The translations under genes and the position numbers were made by a program. Below, one piece after another: positions 28,197 through 30,126 of a DNA stretch of 64,000 nt; the first letter of the stretch is position 1; each line of letters begins with the position of its first letter. The DNA comes from Porphyromonadaceae bacterium H1 (GTDB taxonomy: Bacteria > Bacteroidota > Bacteroidia > Bacteroidales > Paludibacteraceae), in assembly GCA_001653155.1 (NCBI GenBank), contig BDEJ01000016.1, forward strand, positions 1-64,000, given 5' to 3'. The notes under the pieces are model-generated. The model saw nothing but the letters and a program-made list of their open reading frames with translations, was not told the DNA's origin and ran no database searches.

Positions 28197-29033
28197 TTAA
28201 TTCAAAACCTCGACCCGAAGAATCTTTATATCTTCCGAAGGACGGTCTTGGGGATCAGTTGGCGTTTCAGATATTTTCATGACCACGTCAAGGCCCTCTT
28301 CCACCTCGCCGAAAACGCTATACTCTCCATCCAGATGAGGCGTACCGCCAAGCGTTAAGTAGCCCTTGCGTTGCTCCGGAGTAAAACGGTAGGCCTGCGT
28401 AGTCTCCAACTCCCGATGTACGTCGGCCAGAATCGTATCACGCAGCTGGTCCAGTTTCTCACGCTCGCCGGAGAGACGGTATTTCTTTATTTCATCCTGA
28501 TAATCGGACGCTTTGGACTGGAAAAGCTCCAGTTCCTTCCGTTGAAAGCGTTGTCTTTCCATAGCTTCGAGTTCGGCTTCCGAAAAAGGGCGGCCGATTA
28601 CCAAATAAAACTGGCAACCCGAAGAACGGCGTTCCGGGTTTACCGAATCGCCTTGGCGGGCAGCAGCCAAAGCTCCTCGCTTGTGGTAGTAACGCGGATA
28701 AACAAACTCGGCCGGGAGTGTATATCCAACATCGCCCGTACCCAAGGAGGTCTCCCGCTTGGCCTTTTTGGATAGCGGATCGCCGGCTTGAATCATGAAG
28801 TCCTTTATCACACGATGAAAGAGCGTTCCCTCATAAAAACCCTCTTGGGCCAGCTTGATAAAATTATCGCGGTGTGCAGGTGTCTCGTCGTAAAGTCGCA
28901 CAACGATAACACCCCCTGTGGTCTCCAATTTAACCCGATAAGGCCCCGATGCCTCTTTAGGACGGGCCTTGCATGAATTGAACAATCCCATAAACGTAGT
29001 AAATACTAAAACAAGGTATATAAATTTTCGCAT
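28197..29033 (-). CDS. Cyclophilin-type peptidyl-prolyl isomerase lipoprotein
   Basis: 278 residues. A lipoprotein signal (LVFTTFMGLFNSCKARPKEA) puts it in the periplasm, membrane-anchored. The cyclophilin core is evident: RLYDETPAHRDNFIKLAQEG, FYEGTLFHRVIKDFMIQAGD, GYTLPAEF, GCQFYLVIGRPF, and after an insertion GGTPHLDGEYSVFGEVEEGL. About 65 residues of charged helix (near 150-215) interrupt the domain before its last strands, longer than in standard cyclophilins. It should catalyse cis-trans isomerisation of prolyl bonds in exported proteins. A 21-bp tandem repeat lies upstream. Confidence 0.9.
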   Translation of the reverse strand: MRKFIYLVLVFTTFMGLFNSCKARPKEASGPYRVKLETTGGVIVVRLYDETPAHRDNFIKLAQEGFYEGTLFHRVIKDFMIQAGDPLSKKAKRETSLGTGDVGYTLPAEFVYPRYYHKRGALAAARQGDSVNPERRSSGCQFYLVIGRPFSEAELEAMERQRFQRKELELFQSKASDYQDEIKKYRLSGEREKLDQLRDTILADVHRELETTQAYRFTPEQRKGYLTLGGTPHLDGEYSVFGEVEEGLDVVMKISETPTDPQDRPSEDIKILRVEVLN

Positions 29034-29060: not shown

Positions 29061-29068
29061 CAAAAATA
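29061..29068 (-). promoter_or_regulatory. Candidate -7 element for the cyclophilin gene
   Basis: TATTTTTG on the minus strand, exact match 27 nt before the ATG, placed between the tandem repeat and the gene. Confidence 0.45.
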
Positions 29069-29152
29069 GGATTTCTTCTCGAATATTCGAGAAAAGAATC
29101 ACCAAACAAGCTTTGGAATACTGTGGATAAACCTCCAATTCGAATAACCGGG

Positions 29153-29164: not shown

Positions 29165-29193
29165 TTGGAACAGCAGCTAATTCAATTAGACGA

Positions 29194-29400
29194 GCGTCCA
29201 TTGCGATTAGATGGGCGTCCATTGCGATTAGACGAGTGTCCATTGCGATTAGACGAGCGTCCATTGCGATTAGATGGGCGTCCATTGCGATTAGACGAGC
29301 GTCCATTGCGATTAGACGAGCGTCCATTGCGATTAGACGAGCGTCCATTGCGATTAGACGAGCGTCCATTGCGATTAGACGAGCGTCTAATTCGATTCGA
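29194..29400. repeat. 21-bp tandem repeat (minisatellite), nine full units plus a degenerate end
   Basis: Unit GCGTCCATTGCGATTAGACG plus A, repeated without spacers from 29194 to 29382, then a diverged part unit to 29400; a degenerate copy also precedes it (29184-29193). Seven units end GACGA (one of these begins GTG instead of GCG) and two end GATGG. Each GACGA boundary carries the inverted repeat GACG-AG-CGTC. Since 21 is a multiple of three, two frames are open on each strand (for example MDARLIA repeats on the minus and RPLRLDE on the plus strand), but no start signal, signal peptide or domain supports a gene, and the differences between units change amino acids. Probably a variable-number tandem repeat. 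Confidence 0.9.
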
Positions 29401-29409
29401 TGGCGGGGA

Positions 29410-30126
29410 TTAAAGACTTTCGTTCACTTGCTTCCAAGCCTTATCCATGAGTTCGGGAATGCGGTCGGGGAGAAATTCCTTCACGTCGATGGGCTTTTTG
29501 ATATGCAGGCGTATGGTGCCGGGATTCAGACGCAAGGTATGGCGCGGGATCCGTTCGAAGCTTCCCACGAGGGTAGCCGGCACAATAGGTAAAGCCAAAT
29601 CGGAAGCGATGCGGAAAGCTCCCCGTTTGAAAGGAAGCATCTTGCCGTCGTGGCTACGTGTTCCTTCGGGAAAAATAACCACCGACACGCCGTTACGCAG
29701 TTGCTCCTTAGCTTTTTCAATACTTTTGGAGGCAGCCAAAGGACTCGAACGGTCGATGAAAATATGTCCGGCAGCCTGACAGGCCAAACCGACGAAAGGA
29801 ATCCTTCGTAATTCAATTTTCATCACCCATTTGAAGATGTTAGGCAGCCAACCGTAAACGGTAAATATATCGAAATAACTTTGATGGTTAAGAACAAAGA
29901 CGTAGGATTGCCGGGGATCGATATGCTCCAAACCCTCTACCTCTACCTGTACCCAAAGCAAATAGCACATAAGCCGCCCCCACAGGCGAGCGGGGAAGTA
30001 GGAAAAGGCCGTATTGGGGAAAAGAGGAGAGACAAGAACGGTAATAACTGAAGTCAGTATCGTAATGAGTGCCAAAAGAGGTAAGGCAATCAGAATGACA
30101 TAAACGGCGTAACAAAAACGTTTCAT
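29410..30126 (-). CDS. plsC: 1-acyl-sn-glycerol-3-phosphate acyltransferase
   Basis: 238 residues. It adds the second fatty acid during phosphatidic acid synthesis at the cytoplasmic membrane. The N-terminal hydrophobic segment (YVILIALPLLALITILTSVI) anchors it. Catalytic motifs are NHQSYFDIF (H-x4-D), followed by WVMKIELRRIPFVGLACQAA, then FPEGTRSHDGKMLPFKRGAF for glycerol-phosphate binding and PIVPATLVGSFE. The stop codon lies only 10 bp from the degenerate end of the 21-bp repeat; the frame beyond the stop stays open through the repeat, so loss of the stop would append a long repetitive tail. Confidence 0.92.
   Translation of the reverse strand: MKRFCYAVYVILIALPLLALITILTSVITVLVSPLFPNTAFSYFPARLWGRLMCYLLWVQVEVEGLEHIDPRQSYVFVLNHQSYFDIFTVYGWLPNIFKWVMKIELRRIPFVGLACQAAGHIFIDRSSPLAASKSIEKAKEQLRNGVSVVIFPEGTRSHDGKMLPFKRGAFRIASDLALPIVPATLVGSFERIPRHTLRLNPGTIRLHIKKPIDVKEFLPDRIPELMDKAWKQVNESL

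What the first reader, a model, noticed from the sequence alone, without database searches (positions are those of the whole stretch)
29184..29412. 21-bp tandem repeat directly behind plsC, open in two frames on each strand
Nine full 21-bp units in a row, plus degenerate edge copies, fill the short gap between plsC and a cyclophilin gene. The unit length is a multiple of three, each GACGA boundary carries the inverted repeat GACG-AG-CGTC, and the plsC frame stays open through the array past its stop, so a stop mutation would give PlsC a tail of GRSSNRN repeats. Unit differences change amino acids, which argues for a non-coding variable repeat that could act on RNA structure, as a protein-binding array, or as a strain-variable locus.
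Basis: partly seen in the sequence, partly recalled or inferred. Interest (0 to 1): 0.6.

Follow-up and report, generated by a model that had tools for sequence, protein, structure and literature searches.

The report
Species-private 21-bp minisatellite beside plsC
A short stretch of repetitive non-coding DNA, about ten copies of a 21-letter unit, sits between two housekeeping genes of a bacterium (probably of the order Bacteroidales); it has one older sister copy in the same genome and looks like ordinary repeat DNA rather than a gene or a switch, though it is curious that unrelated repeats in this genome share the same 21-letter length.

Summary
The array is real: 9.7 copies of a 21-bp unit at 29185-29387, between plsC and a cyclophilin gene on the same strand. 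A diverged sister array (8.9 copies, consensus 17/21 identical) lies 91 kb away on the same contig. The array is absent from the same gap in the one congener held, and no comparable match was found in 357 other family genomes. Sister-array differences fall evenly on codon positions. No inverted ends or shared flanks. Best reading: a non-coding, lineage-private minisatellite of a kind known from Porphyromonas (BrickBuilt), with another unit and no mobile-element ends. Unexpected: in a non-random 35% sample of this genome, the ten minisatellites (unit above 9 bp, 3.5 copies or more) outside gene-sized ORFs all have period 21 (one as 42), in four unrelated families each at two or more loci. Copy-number variation could not be tested.

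The parts
29185..29387 (+). 21-bp tandem array (F1, array A), consensus ATTAGACGAGCGTCCATTGCG, 9.7 copies
   Evidence: TRF score 371; nine units within 2 mismatches
29174..29184 (+). degenerate left-edge copy (begins at 29174 in unit register)
   Evidence: unit listing in register
29388..29404 (+). degenerate right-edge copy, ending 5 bp from the plsC stop codon
   Evidence: unit listing in register
29410..30126 (-). plsC-type acyltransferase gene (238 aa); 22 bp separate its stop codon from the array
   Evidence: Pfam PF01553 E 1.4e-33; ORF
28197..29033 (-). cyclophilin-type peptidyl-prolyl isomerase gene (278 aa), downstream neighbour in the same direction
   Evidence: Pfam PF00160 E 1.1e-41; order kept in congener G001
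29061..29068 (-). TATTTTTG box beginning 35 bp before the cyclophilin start (34 bp in the congener): candidate promoter element; the Bacteroidetes consensus TAnnTTTG is recalled, not looked up

Best explanation
A non-coding intergenic minisatellite, private to this species among the genomes searched, grown and partly homogenised by replication slippage or unequal recombination between units, and present at two loci of the genome (a young homogeneous array behind plsC and an older diverged one 91 kb away). It sits 3' of plsC and upstream of what is probably the cyclophilin gene's own promoter, where extra DNA is tolerated, and most likely has no selected function. Shown: the array, its sister, its absence from the congener's gap and from the family searches, no coding signal, no excess RNA structure. 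Inferred: slippage as the mechanism, copy-number variability, neutrality, and how the unit reached the second locus (ectopic conversion or template switching; no mobile-element ends found).
For: Array and unit variants: the same two-change variant unit occurs twice (29195, 29258), as block duplication predicts; all 5 differences among the nine full units are transitions. Sister array L062:16571-16757, consensus 17/21 identical to A, 0 of 1000 shuffles as good. A sequence model of both arrays scores 37-72 bits on these two and at most 21.4 bits anywhere else in 358 family genomes, own included (with Infernal's stricter filters, which can lose weak matches). plsC-cyclophilin order kept but gap without the array in G001. 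Sister-array differences by codon position 9/9/10. Open frames, dyad and folding at chance level. Candidate cyclophilin promoter box between array and gene, shared with G001 in otherwise unalignable gaps. Other minisatellites outside gene-sized ORFs in the genome.
Against: Four sequence-unrelated families share the period 21, which simple slippage does not predict. In the sister array the differences are concentrated in some columns while ATTAGAC is nearly constant, which a binding site would also give. Folding of the whole gap is slightly better than dinucleotide shuffles (z -1.94, 3 of 100 as good), but that control destroys the repeat. Copy-number variation was not observed. The congener G001 is only about 55% complete and one genome, so 'private' rests mainly on the family searches.
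Confidence: 0.78

Rival explanations
1. A helically phased DNA-binding array: 21 bp is two turns of B-DNA, and a protein (regulator or nucleoid protein) binds each ATTAGAC-centred unit, tuning the neighbouring genes or local chromosome structure.
For: Period 21 without indels in A; ATTAGAC nearly constant in A and in the diverged sister array; conserved and variable columns differ clearly in the sister array; period 21 recurs in three other families.
Against: No solo copies elsewhere in the genome within 3 of 20 mismatches; absent from the congener's gap and the family searches; orientation relative to the neighbouring ORFs differs between A and its sister; the unit dyad is at chance level.
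Confidence: 0.1
2. The remains of a mobile minisatellite element like BrickBuilt of Porphyromonas gingivalis, whose ends have decayed.
For: Two loci without shared flanks; the F2 family in the same genome has a shared leader of about 110 bp and GTGTTGGGT/ACCCAACAC heptamers on its two sides; the paper reports BrickBuilt copies lacking leader, tail or both (PMC4596501 section 5).
Against: No terminal inverted repeats beyond chance for A (129 of 200 shuffles as good) or its sister (43 of 200); no significant flank similarity between them.
Confidence: 0.08
3. A small protein of heptapeptide repeats is encoded (for example MDARLIA on the minus strand or LDERPLR on the plus strand).
For: Open frames of 103 aa (-) and 82 aa (+); the minus frame that matches MDARLIA, and one plus frame, also stay open through the sister array.
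Against: Four open frames of six is the commonest value for shuffled units; the LDERPLR frame meets a TGA in the sister array; no codon-position bias in the sister array; not in the congener's gap.
Confidence: 0.02
4. The array is an RNA element: 3' UTR stabiliser or terminator of plsC.
For: It begins 22 bp after the plsC stop; units can pair with each other.
Against: Folding no better than column-permuted arrays on either strand; one Rfam match, far below its cut-off (17.7 against 55 bits); the sister array lies in the other orientation relative to its neighbours.
Confidence: 0.02

Closest known systems
BrickBuilt minisatellite/MITE of Porphyromonas gingivalis (PMC4596501; abstract, outline, sections 5, 6, 9 and part 1 of 2 of section 7 read)
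   Same: Order Bacteroidales (for our genome by inference); intergenic; abutting imperfect units of about two helical turns; several loci per genome; confined to one species and a near relative; assembly gaps at the arrays.
   Different: 23-bp unit, 19 loci in the type strain, leader and tail with IS5-like 12-bp inverted ends in the complete copies; here 21 bp, two loci, no such ends.
Intergenic heptanucleotide repeats of Xanthomonas and Nostoc (PMC4692102; passages only)
   Same: Intergenic tandem repeats; in Xanthomonas close to the next 5' neighbouring ORF (average 28 nt), here 22 bp behind plsC; length varies between relatives.
   Different: 7-bp G-rich unit, many loci; here 21 bp, not G-rich, two loci.
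Bacterial VNTR/MLVA loci in general (recalled)
   Same: Short array of near-identical units with edge degeneration, between genes.
   Different: Copy-number variation, which defines them, could not be tested here.

Membership tests
Bacterial minisatellite | Head-to-tail near-identical units of about 10-100 bp | tested here: met
Bacterial minisatellite | Here: non-coding location and no coding signal | tested here: met
   no ORF of 120 aa or more overlaps array A; codon positions 9/9/10 in the sister array; frames at chance. Array A itself has too few differences for the codon test.
VNTR locus | Copy number differs between strains | not testable with these tools
   one genome of the species at hand; metagenome scans capped at zero
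BrickBuilt | 23-bp unit AGAYCATARTATCCTCTCRTRTG | tested here: not met
   unit is 21 bp with no indels; consensus read from the paper
BrickBuilt | Leader and tail with terminal inverted repeats | tested here: not met
   129 of 200 shuffles as good; the paper notes copies without them
BrickBuilt | Dispersed over several loci | tested here: met
   two loci
CRISPR | Repeats separated by unique spacers | tested here: not met
   units abut without spacers
REP/palindromic element | Dyad stronger than chance | tested here: not met
   1397 of 3000 shuffled units as good
Structured RNA | Folding beyond that of matched repeats, or an Rfam family | tested here: not met

The most novel reading that the evidence does not exclude
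This genome has a process that makes or keeps tandem arrays at exactly 21 bp whatever their sequence: four unrelated families (F1-F3, F5) outside gene-sized ORFs, each at two or more loci, all have period 21. It could be set by the helical repeat, through a phased binding protein or a replication enzyme that slips by two turns, and array A is one product.
Probability: 0.12. Interest if true: 0.7.

Novelty: new member of a known kind. Interest (0 to 1): 0.33.

Why it matters
As a single locus it is an ordinary species-private minisatellite, useful at most as a strain marker. If the shared 21-bp period of unrelated arrays holds over the complete genome, it would give a clean natural case for asking what sets the unit length of bacterial minisatellites, a question that the heptamer literature also raises (PMC4692102, passages).

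Tried and rejected
Coding heptapeptide repeat (frames, codon positions, congener), RNA structure (folding with column-permuted controls, Rfam), palindromic element (dyad in shuffled units), MITE ends (inverted repeats, flank BLAST) and CRISPR were each tested and rejected, as told in the report. Origin from a plasmid or phage: no match by distant blastn in plasmids (array A, sister array) or phages (array A; the sister array was not tried there); an exact 18-mer scan of viral contigs hit two single sites, and TRF found no 21-bp array on those loci. Exact pattern scan of genome contigs: none (the own genome may be left out of that collection). The plsC scan of genome contigs gave 3 loci at 37-54% identity, no close species. 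Heptamer origin of the unit (21 = 3x7): its three thirds match each other at 2 of 7 positions each. F2 in 60 relatives: 3 places in 2 genomes within 3 mismatches, none in a 21-bp array. The ATTAGAC triple-pattern search hit 71 of 358 genomes; the places listed (a capped list) are mostly 7-bp arrays and chance, and the reversed control pattern also hits many genomes, so it is not evidence of relatives. Arrays around plsC in 28 other relatives: TRF on loci L012-L039 gave four with rows (L016, L019, L020, L029), none of them a 21-bp array above 2 copies. Literature: seven listings showed no title or abstract opening that describes a 21-bp intergenic array in Bacteroidales; that is not proof of absence from print.

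Full report
Observation. The array is as described: 29185-29387, period 21, 9.7 copies, 94% matches, no indels. Nine full units lie within two mismatches of GACGAGCGTCCATTGCGATTA, six of them exact. The 376-bp gap separates a plsC-type acyltransferase (PF01553) and a cyclophilin (PF00160), both on the minus strand. The plsC frame past its stop runs through the array as GRSSNRN until a TGA.

What is chance. For a 21-bp unit, any frame open in one unit stays open. Two frames are open on each strand; among 2000 shuffles of the unit, four open frames is the commonest outcome (771 of 2000). A dyad with arms of four, like GACG-AG-CGTC, occurs in 1397 of 3000 shuffled units. Folded as RNA, the array is not better than arrays whose columns were permuted identically in every unit: 13 of 60 (+) and 22 of 60 (-) fold at least as well. 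A fold of the whole gap against ordinary dinucleotide shuffles gave z -1.94, but those shuffles destroy the repeat. The same column-permuted test did favour structure on the minus strand of the unrelated F2 arrays (2 of 60 and 1 of 60). Rfam gave one match to the region, far below its cut-off.

A sister array. A strict search (up to 3 mismatches to the 21-mer) found only the nine units of the window. A search of the genome with the translated minus frame showed a second, diverged array on the same contig at C16:120571-120757; a degenerate pattern then gave 16 matches in the genome, nine in array A and seven in the sister. The consensus units are 17/21 identical, 0 of 1000 shuffles as good. ATTAGAC is nearly constant in both. 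The sister array is more diverged: 75% matches against 94%. Its 28 differences from consensus fall 9, 9 and 10 on the three codon positions, whichever frame is taken. The two arrays share no flanks, and neither has inverted ends beyond chance (129 of 200 and 43 of 200 shuffles). Relative to the neighbouring long ORFs they point in opposite directions. The 119-aa ORF after the sister array has no match in 40 other genomes, so it may not be a conserved gene.

Distribution. In the only congener held (G001, about 55% complete) plsC and the cyclophilin are neighbours too, with a 279-bp gap that holds no such array. A 27-mer pattern (up to 3 mismatches, too strict for the sister type) found the unit in 1 of 358 family genomes, the own one. 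A 63-position sequence model of both arrays scored 37-72 bits on the own arrays and at most 21.4 bits elsewhere; 54 other genomes have matches at E up to 0.1 each, best 2.1e-4, which is near what 358 searches give by chance; that run used stricter filters that lose some weak matches. Nothing in plasmids, phages or, for an exact pattern, genome contigs. The order Bacteroidales is inferred: the family member G020 coincides in contig length and position with a record labelled Prevotellaceae.

Position. TATTTTTG, a candidate promoter box (consensus recalled), begins 35 bp before the cyclophilin start in the window and 34 bp before it in G001, in gaps that do not otherwise align; G001 has a second such box 151 bp before the start. 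The array is thus probably outside the cyclophilin transcript and just 3' of plsC, where added DNA is tolerated (inference).

The wider pattern. I ran Tandem Repeats Finder on 992,437 of 2,840,316 bases of the genome: 65 stretches, namely the window, the rest of its contig (fetched because the sister array lies there), the first 20 kb or less of other contigs, and three stretches chosen because earlier results pointed there (on C7, C14 and C43); so not a random sample. Of 46 merged arrays, 23 have at least 3.5 copies: 9 are built on 7-bp units, 9 have a non-heptamer period of 21, one of 42, two of 63, one of 123 and one of 4. The two of 63 lie in an ORF of 678 aa and that of 123 in one of 327 aa; the 4-bp array is outside ORFs of 120 aa or more. 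The halves of the 42-bp unit are 15/21 alike, 0 of 1000 shuffles as good. The ten 21/42 arrays fall in four families, so named here: F1 (A and its sister), F2 (C7, C24), F3 (C10, C14, C34, C44; a pattern search of the whole genome adds two units at C63) and F5 (C41, C48). Consensus units of different families are no more alike than shuffles; those within F1 and F5 are 17/21 alike with 0 of 1000 shuffles. None lies in a gene-sized ORF; two are overlapped by ORFs of 125 and 178 aa that the repeat itself keeps open, and for those at contig ends only one neighbour is known. F2 copies share about 110 bp of leader; F3 copies at C10, C14 and C44 share about 200-280 bp on one side and lie before genes with the same signal peptide; F1, F5 and the C34 copy of F3 share no flanks with their kin.

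In samples of six relatives (504,849 bases) period 21 is not dominant: G001 shows 7, 8, 10, 11, 12, 15, 18 and 33 among others. But three arrays of period 21 or 21/42 occur there too, two weak ones in G002 (60% matches, one outside ORFs of 120 aa) and one in G033 inside an ORF of 310 aa. Four families are few, so the 21-bp period is an observation, not a law.

Assembly caution. F3 arrays lie at ends of contigs C10, C14, C44 and C63, so this assembly breaks in such repeats; the copy number of array A may be understated. The P. gingivalis paper reports assembly gaps at BrickBuilt sites (PMC4596501 section 6).

Verdict. A lineage-private, non-coding minisatellite with one sister locus: a new member of a known kind. 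Most likely it is no more than tolerated repeat DNA that changes length by slippage. The shared 21-bp period of unrelated arrays is the one thing a specialist might want to pursue.

Noticed in passing
L139:29-304 (C10), L271:14115-14432 (C14), L254:1-207 (C44): 21-bp F3 arrays directly before genes that share the signal peptide MKRKSLKTMAMCIIAAAGFLACKPGN (lipoprotein-like, by eye) but have different bodies in the two compared by eye (C10, C44), with 91-94% identical flanks, all at contig ends: a possible recombining gene family with a repeat as the joint.
   Followed up: partly
window 29076-29093: Perfect 18-bp palindrome TTCTCGAATATTCGAGAA just upstream of the cyclophilin TATTTTTG box; only exact copy in the genome, the other hits have 3 mismatches and are no more than the control pattern gives. 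Possible operator.
   Followed up: partly
L136:18320-18748 and L155:19333-19640: Both F2 arrays follow a shared leader of about 110 bp with a hairpin (GGGCGAAC..GTTCGCCC) and have heptamers of the GTGTTGGGT / ACCCAACAC type in opposite orientation on their two sides, like a MITE around a minisatellite; the F2 minus strand folds better than column-permuted controls.
   Followed up: partly
L156:1-5253 and L136: Nine 7-bp-based arrays (ACCCAAC/ACCTAAC/ACCCAAA and a few others) in the sample of this genome; several sibling-genus genomes have 7-bp arrays of ATTAGAC/TTTAGAC.
   Followed up: no
L057:118-190 and 1290-1360: A duplicated piece reading MKTFRHLARAFI(K/R)PGSRQDKRES lies before and inside the gap that holds the sister array.
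   Followed up: no
L258:17187-17438: Array of six 42-bp units, each two diverged 21-mers: a higher-order repeat, on the other strand than its F5 relative at L252:784-891.
   Followed up: partly
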